This document shows, in pieces, positions 34,543 to 40,484 of a stretch of DNA of 44,491 nt (positions within the stretch are counted from its first letter, which is position 1; each line of letters opens with the position of its first letter). Under the pieces are notes generated by a model that ran no database searches, was not told the DNA's origin, and saw nothing but the letters and a program-made list of their open reading frames with translations. This DNA is from an uncultured Bacteroidales bacterium (lineage in GTDB: Bacteria; Bacteroidota; Bacteroidia; Bacteroidales; Muribaculaceae). The position numbers and the translations under genes were made by a program. The stretch spans positions 1 to 44,491 of the forward strand of contig CAMTKF010000018.1 of NCBI GenBank assembly GCA_947072905.1, in the 5' to 3' direction.

Positions 34543-36390
34543 TTATTTGCCCTCCATTATTTTGTTTACACCGTCAACGATTTCCTGTACCAGGAAGGGC
34601 TGGCCTTGGATCTTGTTGATACGACGGATGTCGAGGTTGGGGAATTTGGATTGCAGATAGTCGGCAAACATGCCGGTGTTGAGTTCGGCCACAATGATGG
34701 TCTTGTAGCGGCTGAGGATTTCGCCGGTATTGGCAGGCAGGGGATTGATGTAGCGGAACTGAGTGAAAGCCACACGGCGGCCGGCGGCGTTGAGCTCTTC
34801 GGCTGCGGTGTAGATGTGGCCGTATGTGCCGCCCCATCCTATGATGAGAGTGTCGGCATCGACATCGAGAAGCACCTGCTGCTCGGGTATGTCGTTGGCA
34901 ATGCGTTCTATTTTCTCCTTGCGCAGCATCACCATCTTCTCGTGGTTGACGGGATCGGTGGAGATAGCGCCTGTGTTTGAGTCTTTCTCAAGGCCACCGA
35001 GGCGGTGTTGCAAGCCTTCAGTGCCGGGGATAGCCCAGTAGCGGCTCAGAGTCTCGGGATTGCGCAGGTAGGGCTTCCATGATTCCTTGACCTCGGCGGG
35101 CACGTAGGGCACCTTGATTTCAGGATAGTCGCCTTCTTCGGGTATGCGCCATGCCGATGAGCCGTTGCCGATGAATGCGTCGGTAAGAAGCACTACGGGA
35201 GTCATGTGCTCGATGGCTATGCGCGAGGCTTCGAAAGCCATAGTGAAGCAGTCGGTGGGCGAAACGGGAGCCAGAACGGCCAGGGGCGATTCGCCGTTGC
35301 GGCCATAGAGAGCCTGCATCAGGTCGGTCTGTTCAGTCTTGGTGGGCAGGCCGGTTGAGGGACCGCCGCGCTGCACGTCTACAATCACCAGGGGCAGCTC
35401 GGCCATTACGGCCAGGCCTATACCTTCGCTCTTGAGGGCGAGACCGGGACCCGAGGTAGATGTAACGGCGAGGTCGCCTGCAAATGAAGCGCCTATTGCC
35501 GAGCATACGGCAGCAATCTCGTCTTCCATCTGGCAGGCCTTCACGCCGAGGTCCTTGCGCTTGGCAAGCTCGTGGAGGATGTCGGTGGCGGGGGTGATGG
35601 GGTATGAACCCAGGAAGAGGGGACGACCCGACTTCTCAGAGGCCATGATGAAGCCCCATGCGGTGGCAGTGTTGCCGTTGATATCGGTGTAGACACCCGG
35701 GCGGATGTCGTCAGATTCGATACGATAGGTAGAAACCGAAGCGTGGATATTGTGACCGTAGTCGTAGCCGGCCTGTATTACCTTGGCGTTGGCTTCGTAT
35801 ACGGCGGGCTTTTTGGCAAATTTGTTCTTGAGGAGCTTGAGGGCGCCTTCAACCGGACGGTCGAAGAGCCAGCAAACCAGACCCAACGCAAATATATTGC
35901 GGCATTTGAGTACCGATTTTGCATCCATGCCGCTGTCGGCCAGGGCGGCCTTGGTCATGGAGGTAACGGGGGCCTCGATCACCTGCGCGTTGATACCGAG
36001 CTCTGTAAAGGGATTGTCGGTGGTGAATTCAGCCTTCTTGAGACCGGATTCATTGAACGAGTCGATGTCAACGATGATGACACCGCCGGGCTTCAGAATC
36101 TTGTAGCCGCGTTTGAGGGCAGCCGGATTCATCGCTACCAGCACATCGCACTTGTCGCCGGGAGTGTGTACGCCTTTACCTACACTTGCCTGGAAGGCCG
36201 ATACGCCGCTGAGCGAACCTTGTGGTGGACGCATGTCGGCCGGATAATCGGGGAAAGTGGATACAGCATTGCCCAGACCGGCAGATACATTTGTGAAGAT
36301 GTTTCCTGCCAGCTGCATACCGTCGCCTGAGTCACCCGAAAAGCGTACTACCACCTTGTCGAGGACTTTAACATTGGTTTTCTCTAACAT
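34543..36390 (-). CDS. korA: 2-oxoacid:acceptor oxidoreductase subunit alpha (gamma-alpha fusion)
   Basis: Partner of KorB. The 615-aa protein has an N-terminal gamma-type domain (VVVRFSGDSGDGMQLAGNIF... about residues 1-190) fused to the alpha pyrimidine-binding domain (LFLGSYPITPATDILHELAK, CQMEDEIAAVCSAIGASFAG, TSTSGPGLALKSEGIGLA, and VQRGGPSTGLPTKTEQTDL). It ends with the transketolase C-terminal domain. This fused architecture is the normal KorA of Bacteroidetes. First gene of the korA-korB operon, divergent from the capsid-like cassette. Confidence 0.96.
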   Translation of the reverse strand: MLEKTNVKVLDKVVVRFSGDSGDGMQLAGNIFTNVSAGLGNAVSTFPDYPADMRPPQGSLSGVSAFQASVGKGVHTPGDKCDVLVAMNPAALKRGYKILKPGGVIIVDIDSFNESGLKKAEFTTDNPFTELGINAQVIEAPVTSMTKAALADSGMDAKSVLKCRNIFALGLVCWLFDRPVEGALKLLKNKFAKKPAVYEANAKVIQAGYDYGHNIHASVSTYRIESDDIRPGVYTDINGNTATAWGFIMASEKSGRPLFLGSYPITPATDILHELAKRKDLGVKACQMEDEIAAVCSAIGASFAGDLAVTSTSGPGLALKSEGIGLAVMAELPLVIVDVQRGGPSTGLPTKTEQTDLMQALYGRNGESPLAVLAPVSPTDCFTMAFEASRIAIEHMTPVVLLTDAFIGNGSSAWRIPEEGDYPEIKVPYVPAEVKESWKPYLRNPETLSRYWAIPGTEGLQHRLGGLEKDSNTGAISTDPVNHEKMVMLRKEKIERIANDIPEQQVLLDVDADTLIIGWGGTYGHIYTAAEELNAAGRRVAFTQFRYINPLPANTGEILSRYKTIIVAELNTGMFADYLQSKFPNLDIRRINKIQGQPFLVQEIVDGVNKIMEGK

Positions 36391-36497: not shown

Positions 36498-36506
36498 GCA
36501 AAGGTA
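36498..36506 (-). promoter_or_regulatory. -7 element for korAB
   Basis: Minus strand TACCTTTGC. It would give a leader of about 100 nt that includes the CACAC/GTGTG hairpin. A second weaker candidate lies closer to the gene (36422-36430). Confidence 0.55.
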
Positions 36507-36611
36507 CTGAAAAGTTTTGGATTTAATATAACATTTCAATCAAATCTTGCCACTTTTTACGAAATACGGTGATGATTACGCGATTTCTCAACCGCAGGGG
36601 CTTCCGGGCCA

Positions 36612-36620
36612 TAACTTTGC
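36612..36620 (+). promoter_or_regulatory. -7 element for the capsid-like cassette
   Basis: TAACTTTGC is a perfect host-type match, 37 bp upstream of the 57-aa gene start. The cassette therefore has its own Bacteroidales promoter. A second TTTGC follows at 36627-36631 without a good TA. Confidence 0.7.
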
Positions 36621-36657
36621 AGTGCATTTGCAACATCATTTTTTAATCCCATACAAT

Positions 36658-36831
36658 ATGCAGCAAGAAGAATTCCCCGAAACCACACCCGCAACCGAGG
36701 CTGCCGAACAACAGGAAGACACAGCCATGTATCAGTCGCGCCGGCAGGCTCAGGCGCAGCCCGAGTCGGAAGACCCCAACGACACTTTCCTCAGCCAATT
36801 CAAGCAATCACCATCTTTTTTCTTTCTTTAA
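36658..36831 (+). CDS. 57-aa acidic protein with aromatic C-terminus, upstream of capsid-like gene
   Basis: Not recognised as a family. The first ~40 residues are polar, acidic and low in complexity (MQQEEFPETTPATEAAEQQE...), likely disordered, with 11 Asp/Glu against 3 Arg/Lys. The end is short and hydrophobic: NDTFLSQFKQSPSFFFL. I chose ATG at 36658; an in-frame start at 36547 would lie upstream of the promoter. It ends 3 bp before the capsid-like gene, so the two are surely co-translated. The layout (disordered body plus short hydrophobic tail) would suit a scaffold, a capsid-docking or cargo peptide, or a membrane-touching peptide; all of these are inference. Confidence 0.7.
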   Translation: MQQEEFPETTPATEAAEQQEDTAMYQSRRQAQAQPESEDPNDTFLSQFKQSPSFFFL

Positions 36832-36834
36832 AAT

Positions 36835-38079
36835 ATGACTTACACCAAAGCAAGCGGTGCCGACGGAGGCACCCACGTAGCGGCAGCTCCGCTCACCACC
36901 GAGGCAACCAAAGAAATAGTGCCCGACCTGCTCACCTCGGCCATCGACAGGCGTATCACCCGCATCAGGCCCGCATCAACACCTCTCGACCAGATTTCGC
37001 GCCTTGGCGGCAGCCGCCATTGCAACTCCATGAAGGTTGAATTCTACAGCGTCGATACCAAGAAGACCGAGAGCCGCCTGGCCGCAGACTGCGACCCCGA
37101 AGACAGCACCATACCTCAGGGCGACGGCTCGCGCATGATCAGAATCACTGTCGAAGACCCCTCTATATTCGACGTGTCGGAAACCATCCTGTTTCCAGGC
37201 GTGAAAGACCGCGATGGCAAGGCCGATATAGTGGCATACGTGATGGATACCGGCGAGGCCGGCGAAATCACTGTGTTGCCCACAGCCGAGATTCCCGACA
37301 CGGTCATACCCAAGGGTACTCCCGTGGTGCGTATGGGACGTGCAGCCACAGAGCTTGATGTGCAGACCGCGCAGTTCCAGGCTCTGCCCACCAAGGCCTT
37401 CAACTTCTGCCAGATTTTCAAGATGCAGGTGGAGCAGTCAACCCTGCAGAAACTGGCTTCAAAGGAAGTGGCATGGACCCTGAACGACCAGGAAGAGGCA
37501 GCCGTGATAGACATGCGCCTGGGCATGGAGAAGTCGTTTCTTTTCGGCACCCGCACCAGCTTCACCAACACCCGCAAGGGCGAGGACGTGTACCTCACCG
37601 GCGGCATCTGGAACCAGGCCACCGAGACATTTGAGTACGACGTGAACAACCTCACCCACGAGACCATAGTGGAAATATGCGCCCGTGCATTCACCGGCAA
37701 CGGCGGCTCCAAGAAGCGCATACTGCTTGCCGGCACCGGACTGGTGACAGCTCTGTCAAACCTCGACTTCAACAAGTCGGTAGACATGCGCGATCCTCAT
37801 GTGAAGTGGGGTATCGTGGCCCGCGAGATTTTCACCAACTTCGGTCAGCTCTACCTCGTCACCTCCGAGATTTTCGACCAGTGCGGCCACAAGAACGACG
37901 GATTTATCATAGATCCGGCATACATTTCGAAGTATGTGCATATCCCCTTCCATGCCGAGAAGCTCGATCTGCGTGCCTCGGGCCAGCGCAACACCGATGC
38001 CGTGGTGCTCACCGAAGCCTCGTGCCTCGTTCTCCGCTATCCCAAGTGCCACCTGCGCCTTGTCGACAAAGGAATTTAA
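36835..38079 (+). CDS. Phage-type major capsid-like protein (SU10/DUF5309-like, HK97 fold suspected)
   Basis: A 414-aa protein with the look of a tailed-phage major capsid protein of the SU10/DUF5309 group. Seen: an N-terminal arm (1-45); FNFCQIFK (189-196) followed by a long spine-like helix (200-238) containing the EKSFLFGTR block; YLTGGIWNQ (253-261); the strand-turn KRILLAGTG (294-302); WGIVAREIFTNFGQLYLVTS (325-344); and GFIIDPAYISKY (356-367). This order (arm, spine helix with 'xxGxR', 'TGGI', 'LLAGTG', 'WGI...FG.L.L', 'DP.Y') is what I know of that family; fold membership is inferred by eye. The frame is intact with host-like codon use. No terminase, portal, protease or tail genes are nearby, so it is a solitary capsid gene. 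Confidence 0.75.
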   Translation: MTYTKASGADGGTHVAAAPLTTEATKEIVPDLLTSAIDRRITRIRPASTPLDQISRLGGSRHCNSMKVEFYSVDTKKTESRLAADCDPEDSTIPQGDGSRMIRITVEDPSIFDVSETILFPGVKDRDGKADIVAYVMDTGEAGEITVLPTAEIPDTVIPKGTPVVRMGRAATELDVQTAQFQALPTKAFNFCQIFKMQVEQSTLQKLASKEVAWTLNDQEEAAVIDMRLGMEKSFLFGTRTSFTNTRKGEDVYLTGGIWNQATETFEYDVNNLTHETIVEICARAFTGNGGSKKRILLAGTGLVTALSNLDFNKSVDMRDPHVKWGIVAREIFTNFGQLYLVTSEIFDQCGHKNDGFIIDPAYISKYVHIPFHAEKLDLRASGQRNTDAVVLTEASCLVLRYPKCHLRLVDKGI

Positions 38080-38098
38080 AATTTAGAATTTAGAATTT
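38071..38098. repeat. AT-rich TTTAGAATT-type short repeat
   Basis: Three tandem variants of 'AATTTAGA/AATTTAAA' straddle the stop of the capsid-like gene, like the words at 2775-2862 and 41708-41742. Confidence 0.55.
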
Positions 38099-38099
38099 T

Positions 38100-38129
38100 C
38101 CCATGCCGCCGTATATATGGCGGCATGGG
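38100..38129 (+). promoter_or_regulatory. Strong hairpin between capsid-like gene and the third cassette gene
   Basis: Arms CCCATGCCGCC (38100-38110) and GGCGGCATGGG (38119-38129) form a perfect 11-bp GC-rich stem with an 8-nt loop. It lies 21 bp after the capsid-like stop and 15 bp before the next start. There is no T-run, so it is more likely an RNA-stability or partial attenuation element than a full terminator (inference). Confidence 0.7.
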
Positions 38130-38143
38130 GCATTTATAAAATC

Positions 38144-38698
38144 ATGAAAACTTACACTAAAACAGAAATGCTGACCATCTGGCGCAATGCGCTGGGACTC
38201 ACACCGGTAAACGACAACTGCAACATAAGCAGTGTGGAAAGCCTTGACATAGACCGCTGGCTGTGCCGGCACATGCGGCAGTGGTACCTGAATATACTTG
38301 ATACGGCCGATCCGTGGCTGTGCCCGGTCACCAACGCCGCCCGTCAGGCCGACCTGAGCCGGCGCGGCCTGTTCGGGCTGATCACTCTTCCCGAAGGCAC
38401 ACGCCGTGCGCTGTCGGTGAAGATGTCAGAGTGGATAAACCCGGTGCAGGTGCAGCCATACGTAGACGTGATGGACAGGGTGCGCCGCATGGCCTCGGCC
38501 TTTGCCCGTCCGGGCTGCCACGAGCCTCTGGCCTACAAAGGCGCGCAGGGCGTGATGGTGGCTCCGGTGCAGGGCACCGTAGAGCACCTCTCGGTAATAG
38601 CAGACCCCGGCGAGGAGCTTTACATCCTCGACGAGGTCCTTTTATCTACCATCCCCAAGTGCCTTATGCACGTACGTGACGACGGAAATTGTCTTTGA
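38144..38698 (+). CDS. 184-aa protein of unknown function, third gene of the capsid-like cassette
   Basis: Not recognised. Cytoplasmic-looking: no signal peptide or membrane helix. It starts MKTYTKTEMLTIWRNALGL, has an aromatic segment MRQWYLNILDTADPWLCPV, a basic stretch RRGLFGLITLPEGTRRALSVKMSEW, and ends with VQGTVEHLSVIADPGEELYILDE. Six Cys are present. The ATG at 38144 is preferred to one at 38117 that lies in the hairpin. In phages the gene after the major capsid gene often encodes a head-completion or connector protein, so a connector-like role is possible, but nothing in the sequence proves it. Its 3' end overlaps the convergent Na/Pi transporter gene by 35 bp. Confidence 0.75.
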   Translation: MKTYTKTEMLTIWRNALGLTPVNDNCNISSVESLDIDRWLCRHMRQWYLNILDTADPWLCPVTNAARQADLSRRGLFGLITLPEGTRRALSVKMSEWINPVQVQPYVDVMDRVRRMASAFARPGCHEPLAYKGAQGVMVAPVQGTVEHLSVIADPGEELYILDEVLLSTIPKCLMHVRDDGNCL

Positions 38699-40484
38699 TG
38701 GTGTCTACTACATTGATGATATAGTCGCCGGTGCGTTCGAGGTCGGAGATGATATCCATGTAATAGATACCGGCCTGATACTGGTATACACCGTCGTTGA
38801 TGTTCTTGAGGTTCTGCGAGCGCAGCGAGTTGCGCATGTTGTTGATTTCGCGTTCCTTGTTGTAAGAAGCCACAAGCGGACGCTCGGCCACGTTCTCCAG
38901 GTCCTTCAGCTCGGCGAGCATCAGCTCCATGGCTTCGTGGATGTAGCGGTACATGGTGTCGATATTGTTGTATATCTCTTCGTTGAACTCGGCGTGGCTC
39001 TCTATCTTGCGGTTGAGAATCTTGCCTATGCCGGCGCAGCAGTCGGCTATGCTCTCTATTTCGCTGATAATGCCGAGCATGGCTGCGATGCGGGCCTTAC
39101 CTTCGTTAGAAAGGCGTCCTTCGGCGCATCGGTTGAGGTAGCGGGCTATCTCCAGTTCCATGCGGTCTGATATGTCCTCATATTTCTCAAGTCGCGAATA
39201 CAGGGTGTTGAATTCCTCGCTCTCGGCCTTGGTGTGTATGAGTGTCTGAGCCATGTCGACCATGCGGTAAACTCGCTCGGCAAATACGCTGATTTCTTTT
39301 TCGGCCTGGGTGATATTGAGTTCTGAAGCGTTGAGCAGACCGCCCGAGATGAACTTGAGTGTGAATTCGTCGTCCTGCTTCTTGCCGGGAACGAGCCATT
39401 CAACGAGCTTCACATATACATTGGTAAGCCATATCATTATACCCACGTTCACTATGTTGAATGTGGTATGGAATATCGACAGGCCGAACGACACGCTCAT
39501 CTGCATGATGCCTATCTGGCGTATCACATCGTGGCCGGCGGGCAGCGAATTGTCAAACAGATGGTTGTAGATTTCGGGCTGAGTCTGTTCTATACCCGTT
39601 ACAAACATATAGAGGTCGTTGGGGTTGCCCTGGCCTATTTTCTCGGTGAGCCATGCGTTGAAGTCGGCGAAAGGCACGAAGATACAGATGCACCACACAG
39701 TACCCAGCAGGTTGAAGAGCAGGTGGCCCATGGCGGTGCGCTTGGCGGCCACGTTACCGCTCATAGAGGCGAGCAAGGGGGTGATGGTGGTACCGATATT
39801 TGAACCGAGCACCACGGCGCATGCCAGGTCGAATGTAATCCAGCCCTTGGTACACATTATAAGTACTATGGCAAATGTAGCAGCCGAGCTTTGTATGATG
39901 GCTGTGACTACAACACCTACTATAAGGAACAGGAATATGGAGCCAAGGCCCATCGAGGCATAATTGCGCAGAACGGCAAACATCTCGGGATTGGACTGAA
40001 GATCGGGCACATAGCTCGAAATCATGTTCAGGCCCATAAACAAGAAAGCAAAGCCTATGAGAAATTCACCTATACTCTTGGCTTTGCTTTTGTTTGAGAA
40101 TAACAGTACTACGGCTATGCAAATCATCGGCAGCACGGCCACCGACACATCTACTTTAAAGCCGAACAAGGCTATGATCCATGCCGTGAACGTGGTACCG
40201 ACATTGGCACCGAATATTACGGCCATCGACTGGGCCAGTGTCATAAGACCGGCGTTAACGAAGCTCACCACCATTACCGTGGAGGCCGAGGAGCTTTGTA
40301 TAAGCGCAGTAATCGCACAACCGGTGATGAGGCCGGTGAAGCGGTTGCGGGTCATTACAGAGAGGATATTGCGCAGGCGGTCGCCGGCGGCTTTCTGAAG
40401 GCCTTCGCTCATAACTTTCATTCCGTACAGGAACAAGCCTACAGCTCCGAGAAGACCTAAGAAGTCTAATAGTGTATAGTCCAT
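38664..40484 (-). CDS. Na/Pi cotransporter family protein with PhoU-like domain
   Basis: Sodium-dependent phosphate transporter-like membrane protein of 606 aa. It has two Na/Pi-cotransporter repeats with the QSSS signature (TALIQSSSAST, residues 63-66 in the motif) and its second version (AIIQSSAATF). About nine membrane helices are followed by a cytoplasmic C-terminal PhoU-like helical domain (from about residue 380, with NLDTM-like helices and NNMRNSLRSQNLKNIND). The ATG at 40484 is chosen because the in-frame start at 40535 lies upstream of the promoter (40524-40532). Its 3' end overlaps the capsid cassette's third gene by 35 bp on the other strand. Confidence 0.94.
   Translation of the reverse strand: MDYTLLDFLGLLGAVGLFLYGMKVMSEGLQKAAGDRLRNILSVMTRNRFTGLITGCAITALIQSSSASTVMVVSFVNAGLMTLAQSMAVIFGANVGTTFTAWIIALFGFKVDVSVAVLPMICIAVVLLFSNKSKAKSIGEFLIGFAFLFMGLNMISSYVPDLQSNPEMFAVLRNYASMGLGSIFLFLIVGVVVTAIIQSSAATFAIVLIMCTKGWITFDLACAVVLGSNIGTTITPLLASMSGNVAAKRTAMGHLLFNLLGTVWCICIFVPFADFNAWLTEKIGQGNPNDLYMFVTGIEQTQPEIYNHLFDNSLPAGHDVIRQIGIMQMSVSFGLSIFHTTFNIVNVGIMIWLTNVYVKLVEWLVPGKKQDDEFTLKFISGGLLNASELNITQAEKEISVFAERVYRMVDMAQTLIHTKAESEEFNTLYSRLEKYEDISDRMELEIARYLNRCAEGRLSNEGKARIAAMLGIISEIESIADCCAGIGKILNRKIESHAEFNEEIYNNIDTMYRYIHEAMELMLAELKDLENVAERPLVASYNKEREINNMRNSLRSQNLKNINDGVYQYQAGIYYMDIISDLERTGDYIINVVDTIKDNFRRHVRA

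What the first reader, a model, noticed from the sequence alone, without database searches (positions are those of the whole stretch)
36547..38698. Solitary phage-type capsid gene cassette embedded between housekeeping genes
Seen: three intact, closely spaced plus-strand genes (57, 414 and 184 aa) behind a host-type promoter, flanked by korA and a Na/Pi transporter. The 414-aa product has the motif order of SU10/DUF5309-type major capsid proteins. Known: phage heads need terminase, portal and usually protease genes, and none is in this 44 kb. Inference: the capsid has been domesticated, for example as an encapsulin-like compartment, a defence or gene-transfer particle, or is a remnant preserved by selection. 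I know of no described function for such a solitary Bacteroidales capsid.
Basis: partly seen in the sequence, partly recalled or inferred. Interest (0 to 1): 0.85.

Follow-up and report, generated by a model that had tools for sequence, protein, structure and literature searches.

The report
Scattered virus-derived DNA-packaging gene set
A virus shell gene found alone between ordinary bacterial genes turns out to be one piece of a scattered, jointly controlled virus-derived DNA-packaging kit that a large family of gut bacteria seems to have kept as its own, possibly to move pieces of its DNA between cells.

Summary
The cassette is real: scaffold remnant (57 aa), SU10-type major capsid protein (414 aa), adaptor-like protein (184 aa), between korA-like and Na/Pi-cotransporter genes. 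It is not solitary. The same genome carries an intact terminase large subunit behind a virion gene at one further site and a P22-like portal at another; most relatives keep the portal directly behind the adaptor. The capsid gene occurs in 174 of 225 genomes (25 of 26 genera) of the window's family (apparently Muribaculaceae). In 11 of 11 genomes chosen from six Bacteroidales families capsid, portal and terminase are all present; in four single-contig ones capsid and terminase lie 31 to 955 kb apart. The genes are under purifying selection and the capsid tree shares 9 of 20 splits with rpoB. All three sites in the window genome share a 25-bp sequence exactly 25 nt upstream of their own -7 boxes, matched nowhere else in the sequence held; in 12 of 24 congeneric genomes capsid and terminase operons share their own version. 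Best reading: an ancient domesticated, dispersed, co-regulated, short-tailed-phage-derived packaging system that works like a gene transfer agent. Domestication is well supported; packaging and transfer of host DNA are inferred. My literature searches found no such system reported in Bacteroidota.

The parts
36562..36586 (+). 25-bp shared operator-like sequence
   Evidence: Related sequence upstream of the portal gene and of the p831-terminase operon on contig C6 of this genome, each exactly 25 nt before a TANNTTTGC box; no other position of 6.87 million held scores as high
36612..36620 (+). -7-type promoter box TAACTTTGC of the cassette
   Evidence: Pattern search; the meaning of the box is recalled knowledge of Bacteroidota promoters
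36658..36831 (+). 57-aa acidic protein: shortened scaffolding protein (inferred)
   Evidence: Position before MCP; counterparts in many relatives hit the C-terminal part of the prophage scaffold-like profile and share, by eye, a C-terminal FLxxxRxSxWD-like motif that is degenerate here
36835..38079 (+). 414-aa SU10-type major capsid protein (MCP)
   Evidence: Pfam PF17236 E 2.3e-49; PHROG 26635 8e-76; family profile matches a solved major capsid chain, 9in6, E 5.7e-10
38144..38698 (+). 184-aa adaptor-like (head-to-tail) protein
   Evidence: Conserved between MCP and portal in relatives; counterpart in another family matches PHROG 22135, function unknown. The adaptor role is inferred from position
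34543..36390 (-). korA-like host gene (left flank)
   Evidence: Pfam POR_N, POR
38664..40484 (-). Na/Pi cotransporter host gene (right flank, convergent, overlaps the adaptor frame by 35 bp)
   Evidence: Pfam Na_Pi_cotrans

Best explanation
The cassette is the capsid module of an ancient domesticated short-tailed phage whose head and packaging genes have been split over several chromosomal sites and kept by the host lineage as one co-regulated system. Shown: in this genome the set is scaffold remnant + MCP + adaptor (window), an ~800-aa virion protein + terminase large subunit (frames at C6:1126-5399) and a portal (C6:31068-32402, minus strand), each intact, each site behind its own -7-type box and a related 25-bp sequence. 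Inferred: one regulator switches on the three sites together; MCP and the short scaffold build a small head on the portal; terminase fills it with host DNA, since no phage genome block was seen around the sites; adaptor and the ~800-aa protein close it with a stub tail. The particle would then work like a gene transfer agent. Release and entry (lysis, ejection, fibres) are not identified in this genome.
For: Terminase in G000 at C6 with the residues that align with the T4 gp17 motor and nuclease kept; portal PF16510 6.6e-18. Of 49 congeneric genomes 38 have the domesticated-type MCP, 38 the portal, 37 the terminase, 44 at least one (tally, recounted; pieces at contig ends counted); rpoB, which all must have, was found in 33 of 49. 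MCP in 174 of 225 family genomes, 25 of 26 genera. MCP, portal and terminase in 11 of 11 selected genomes of 6 families, e.g. single-contig G202 at 0.94 (terminase), 1.36 (portal) and 1.89 Mb (MCP). dN/dS 0.10-0.37. MCP and rpoB trees share 9 of 20 splits, at most 3 in 2000 label shuffles. 279 relatives in genome contigs against 9, 5 of them close, in 2.9 million viral contigs; none in plasmids. Shared operator in the window genome; within-genome sharing between MCP and terminase operons in the genus, 0 of 20,000 permutations as high. An endolysin-type gene lies in the MCP locus of three genomes of other families (PHROG 894, 1.2e-18, tested for one). A fumarate hydratase gene borders the MCP locus in four families.
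Against: No particle, expression or packaged DNA was seen. Profiles of two ejection-like genes, a fibre-like gene and the endolysin-type gene found nothing in 484 kb of the 2.69 Mb window genome; the rest was not examined for them. A five-genome clade has only prophage-type hits; G030 (99% complete) shows no terminase and a broken portal, and the G092 portal is in two frames, so the set is dispensable. Distance correlation of terminase with rpoB is not significant (rho 0.14, 290 of 2000 permutations as high; MCP 0.30, 63 of 2000). Support for one domesticated group in the MCP tree is only 80. The shared-operator test found nothing in other genomes outside the genus (0 of 69 pairs). The window's scaffold has lost the common C-terminal motif.
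Confidence: 0.7

Rival explanations
1. Same domesticated particle, but it kills or signals rather than transfers genes: heads are released by lysis of some cells and act on kin or competitors, as PBSX is reported to do.
For: Same parts list; no ejection-like genes were found near the sites held from the window's family. PBSX as a non-transferring, bacteriocin-like element is described in passages of PMC7667829.
Against: A conserved terminase with intact motor and nuclease residues would not be needed by a killer without DNA; no contractile tail genes were noticed, though I ran no search for them.
Confidence: 0.15
2. Decaying remnants of an old prophage, scattered by rearrangement and not functional.
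For: Genes dispersed; scaffold and portal shortened; some lineages lost or broke parts.
Against: Intact frames through most of a family, dN/dS 0.10-0.37, nuclease and motor residues invariant in 17 of 17 aligned terminases, shared operators.
Confidence: 0.05
3. Repeated recent integration of a common family of temperate phages or satellites that carry these genes.
For: Prophages of the parent type occur in some of the same genomes (G029, G004).
Against: Separate sites, tree agreement with rpoB, named phage relatives only 36% identical, same host neighbour (fumarate hydratase) in four families. Flanks of the other sites read as host genes by eye; I made no integrase search.
Confidence: 0.04
4. 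Encapsulin-like or other protein compartment built from the capsid alone.
Against: Portal, terminase and adaptor are conserved with it and the sites share an operator; no cargo gene is fixed beside it in the maps read.
Confidence: 0.03

Closest known systems
FpGTA of Faecalibacterium (PMC12946183; outline, passages and sections 7 and 9 read)
   Different: Gram-positive host; a 10.5-kb operon plus a 5.5-kb operon with lysis genes; particles and 8.4-8.9 kb host DNA shown. Here: Bacteroidota, two or three sites, SU10-type capsid, shared operator, no particle shown
Alphaproteobacterial gene transfer agents such as RcGTA (recalled; mentioned in passages of PMC12946183)
   Same: Vertical inheritance, purifying selection, genes at several sites under host control
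   Different: Long-tailed particle with a main cluster; other capsid arrangement; Alphaproteobacteria
Bacteroides phages BF1-TP2, BKO1-TP3, BS-TP4 (64-68 kb)
   Same: The only named phages in the 50,697-record collection matched by the MCP (36%), best for the terminase (about 36%) and for the p831 counterpart of another family, G434 (25-27%)
   Different: Complete phage genomes; the 40 kb of BF1-TP2 that I viewed carry methyltransferases, regulators and many other genes; longer scaffold-like, portal and capsid proteins
PBSX of Bacillus subtilis (passages of PMC7667829)
   Same: Resident phage-like element reported to package random 13-kb host DNA
   Different: Defective prophage in one block, reported to act as a bacteriocin, not to transfer DNA
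Encapsulins (recalled)
   Same: HK97-type shell
   Different: Work without portal and terminase; carry enzyme cargo

Membership tests
Gene transfer agent | Phage-derived head, portal and terminase genes resident in host genomes | tested here: met
Gene transfer agent | No phage block with replication or integration genes around the window site; pieces cannot move as a unit | tested here: met
   Six genes near the cassette are host genes by Pfam; other sites judged by eye only; sites far apart in single-contig genomes. No integrase search was made
Gene transfer agent | Vertical inheritance across a host lineage | tested here: met
   9 of 20 splits shared with rpoB; 25 of 26 genera. Distance correlations are weaker, terminase not significant
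Gene transfer agent | Purifying selection on the structural genes | tested here: met
   dN/dS 0.10-0.37; two of 24 set-gene pairs had saturated synonymous sites
Gene transfer agent | Coordinated control of all sites | tested here: met
   Shared operator-like sequence in the genus; not found outside it
Gene transfer agent | Particles that package short pieces of host DNA | not testable with these tools
   Needs particles and sequencing
Gene transfer agent | Delivery of DNA to recipient cells | not testable with these tools
   Needs a transfer assay
Gene transfer agent | Lysis genes for release | tested here: inconclusive
   Endolysin-type gene in the MCP locus of three genomes of other families; not found in the 484 kb of the window genome examined
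SU10-type (DUF5309) major capsid protein | Pfam PF17236 match above cut-off over most of the protein | tested here: met
   168.9 bits against 24.1, residues 35-411 of 414
SU10-type (DUF5309) major capsid protein | HK97 fold | not tested
Encapsulin | Shell gene acting without portal and terminase | tested here: not met
   Portal and terminase conserved with it
Complete prophage at this site | Terminase, portal and phage block around the capsid | tested here: not met
   Host genes on both sides; terminase and portal on another contig

The most novel reading that the evidence does not exclude
This is a working gene transfer agent of Bacteroidota: an ancient, short-tailed-phage-derived particle, its genes scattered over two or three sites and tied together by species-specific operators, present in most members of the Muribaculaceae and in five further Bacteroidales families, and a standing route of DNA exchange among dominant gut bacteria.
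Probability: 0.55. Interest if true: 0.95.

Novelty: new variant of a known kind. Interest (0 to 1): 0.88.

Why it matters
[quoted passage not shown] A resident packaging system in nearly every genus would add another route. [quoted passage not shown] I did not see which of the 46 are). It shows how such systems hide: each piece alone looks like a stray phage gene, and pieces are filed as viral contigs. The fast-changing shared operators offer a handle for finding the regulator.

Tried and rejected
Solitary capsid or encapsulin: dropped once terminase and portal were found in the same genome. Recent prophage or satellite: dropped after the maps of single-contig genomes, the tree comparison and the phage, plasmid and viral-contig searches. 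Defence system: no PADLOC match for 5 proteins at E 0.01. NCBIfam named none of 10 proteins above a cut-off.

Led nowhere: adaptor and p831 profiles against solved structures (no credible match); a first motif comparison had a slicing fault for loci cut at a contig end and was replaced; shared operators in genomes outside the genus (0 of 69 pairs at 15 or more identities, but also 0 of 520 between-genome pairs, so the test had little power there); palindromy of the shared 25-mers is clear in some genomes (G064 0 of 2000 shuffles, G019 5 of 2000) but not in the window genome, so 'dimeric regulator' is only a suggestion. The null's pairwise alignments could overlap the sites themselves; I rely on the profile scan instead. 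The endolysin-type gene of other families gave nothing in Pfam; PHROGs says endolysin.
Full report
OBSERVATION. The 414-aa product is an SU10-type major capsid protein (Pfam PF17236, E 2.3e-49; PHROG 26635). It lies between korA-like and Na/Pi-cotransporter genes behind a TAACTTTGC box (the meaning of that box as a Bacteroidota -7 element is recalled).

NOT SOLITARY. Of 61 genomes first searched, the window's own included, 34 have a match; nearly all are congeners, the intact domesticated-type ones at 48-59% identity. In the neighbourhoods fetched, a third gene of about 440 aa follows the adaptor-like gene; the copy tested is a portal protein (PHROG 156 4e-34, Pfam P22_portal 4e-17). The window's cassette lacks the portal, but the genome has one: C6:31068-32402, minus strand, between host genes (Pfam 6.6e-18). 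A terminase profile built from seven loci, six of them congeneric, finds an intact terminase at C6:3579-5399, directly behind a gene of about 800 aa (p831). p831 has relatives in two full prophages of the genus (E 3.5e-9 and 1.2e-4); its counterpart in another family, G434, matches phage tail and virion PHROGs weakly and Bacteroides phages; the window genome's own p831 matched no PHROG. Terminase keeps the residues that align with the T4 gp17 motor and nuclease.

DISTRIBUTION. In 49 genomes of the genus the domesticated-type MCP is in 38, portal in 38 and terminase in 37; 44 have at least one and 29 all three (rows sorted by me into domesticated and prophage type by score, recounted; pieces at contig ends and the broken G030 portal counted). 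rpoB was found in 33 of 49, so absence in these fragmented assemblies means little. MCP and portal are adjacent in 33 of the 38, on different contigs in 2 (the window genome and G071) and unresolved in 3 (same calls). The five genomes with only prophage-type hits form one clade in the rpoB tree, which suggests one loss. In the family, 174 of 225 genomes at least 90% complete have an MCP at E 1e-60 or better, 25 of 26 genera; five of the 174 score in the range of the prophage type (E 1e-96 to 1e-112) and may be that. Of the 80 relatives, record titles give Muribaculaceae for 32, Porphyromonadaceae 16, Prevotellaceae 4, two others, 26 without a family. In the order, 26 of 296 genomes have the terminase at E 1e-60 or better, in families f1, f22, f28, f53, f60 and f93 with single hits in four others (the non-matching genomes were mostly not listed). 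In 11 of 11 genomes that I chose from six families, all known beforehand to have the MCP or the terminase, MCP, portal and terminase are all present, one portal (G092) in two frames. Single-contig genomes, terminase / portal / MCP in Mb: G202 0.94 / 1.36 / 1.89; G454 1.43 / 1.15 / 1.40; G434 2.759 / 2.773 / 2.726; G174 0.334 / 0.377 / 0.382. A single cluster may be the ancestral or a regained state; I cannot tell which.

ORIGIN. The only named phages matched by the MCP are Bacteroides phages BF1-TP2, BKO1-TP3 and BS-TP4 at about 36% identity, and they are the best for the terminase. In the MCP tree of 48 rows the domesticated proteins of six families form one group (support 80, not strong) beside BF1-TP2 and a resident prophage; IMG/VR contigs L205 and L208 fall inside the window's family and L209 among the other families, so they look like chromosome fragments. 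Other families keep more parts: longer scaffold and portal, a small gene between MCP and adaptor, a pair of genes beside terminase or portal whose smaller member also occurs in two full prophages, and an endolysin-type gene. A fumarate hydratase gene borders the MCP locus in four families (Pfam in 4 of 4). In the family the frames picked upstream of MCP are mostly about 46-161 aa (script picks, not all of them the scaffold) against about 250 aa in prophages, and the portal of the genus is about 430-480 aa.

SELECTION AND INHERITANCE. Nei-Gojobori dN/dS for close pairs: MCP 0.10-0.19 (5 of 6 pairs finite), terminase 0.10-0.23 (5), portal 0.16-0.29 (4 of 5), adaptor 0.17-0.37 (4), p831 0.22-0.29 (4), rpoB 0.02-0.03 (3); synonymous sites are near saturation in many pairs. 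MCP and rpoB trees of 23 genomes share 9 of 20 splits; label shuffles reach at most 3 in 2000. Distance correlations with rpoB are weaker: adaptor 0.41, p831 0.32, MCP 0.30, portal 0.26, terminase 0.14, the last not significant.

ONE REGULON. Upstream of the cassette, the portal and p831-terminase in the window genome lies a related 25-mer, ending exactly 25 nt before the -7-type box in all three. A profile from the first two sites scores the third higher than any other of 6,871,648 positions of all loci then held (copies of the window aside); in 967,878 positions of this genome (484 kb, both strands) the next site is far lower, 16 against 29 or more with the three-site profile. In 24 congeneric genomes with both upstream regions, MCP and terminase operons share a 25-mer at the same register with 16 or more identities in 12 of 24 within-genome pairs against 12 of 552 between-genome pairs (one of the 24 had no box). 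In the 23 with boxes the diagonal sum is 359 against a permuted mean of 249, none of 20,000 as high. The sequence differs between species, as expected of a fast-evolving regulator. Outside the genus the test found nothing.

HOW IT LIKELY WORKS. Shown: a head-and-packaging parts list (capsid, portal, motor, and by inference scaffold remnant, adaptor and tail-like protein), selection on it, and signs of joint control. Inferred: induced particles with small heads filled by the terminase with chromosomal DNA, as in gene transfer agents. Not shown: particles, packaged DNA, release, entry, transfer. The names scaffold, adaptor and tail-like protein rest on position and weak family matches.

KNOWN WORK. 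Searches for gene transfer agent with Bacteroidales, Muribaculaceae, Bacteroidota plus domesticated, Porphyromonas, domesticated capsid terminase Bacteroidales, podovirus-like with Bacteroidetes, and related terms gave no report of such a system in Bacteroidota that I could see in the listings; the library holds open-access papers only, no preprints. The nearest published system is FpGTA of Faecalibacterium (PMC12946183).

CHECK. On recounting I corrected the spread of the sites in single-contig genomes, added the broken G092 portal, the possible prophage-type hits in the family count and the limits of the flank and scaffold evidence, and confirmed the fumarate hydratase.

VERDICT. Domesticated, dispersed and co-regulated: well supported. 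Works like a gene transfer agent: likely. Membership in the proven sense: untested.

Noticed in passing
L152, L165, L170, L173, L175, L181, L184 and others (N-terminus of MCP); phage BF1-TP2 protein P0004: Many MCPs of this family, of other families and of phage BF1-TP2 start with a hydrophobic, membrane-like segment (by eye) that the window's MCP lacks. A capsid protein with a membrane anchor would be odd; function unknown.
   Followed up: partly
L205, L206, L207, L208 (IMG/VR contigs): These contigs classed as viral carry the domesticated genes; L205 and L208, the two put in the tree, nest among chromosomal genes of the window's family, so they are probably misfiled host fragments.
   Followed up: partly
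PQ571263, PQ571269, PQ571277 (Bacteroides phages): The gene matched by the terminase is annotated 'tail spike protein' in all three records; it looks like a terminase large subunit.
   Followed up: no
G030:C11:224172-225451 (L039 10673-11955): Portal is in two frames and no terminase was found in this 99% complete genome, while MCP and adaptor are open: a lineage apparently losing the system.
   Followed up: partly
L060, L061 (G029, G004) and G022:C51: Prophage-type relatives (G022: terminase and portal seen) live in the same genomes as domesticated genes, so cross-talk between the two is possible.
   Followed up: no
L208 556-9551: Contig with two inverted copies of MCP-adaptor-portal facing each other; assembly artefact or inverted duplication.
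   Followed up: no
window, whole length: TANNTTTGC boxes are over-represented: 23 found, 5.2 expected, including one at 36498-36506 on the minus strand upstream of the korA-like gene.
   Followed up: no
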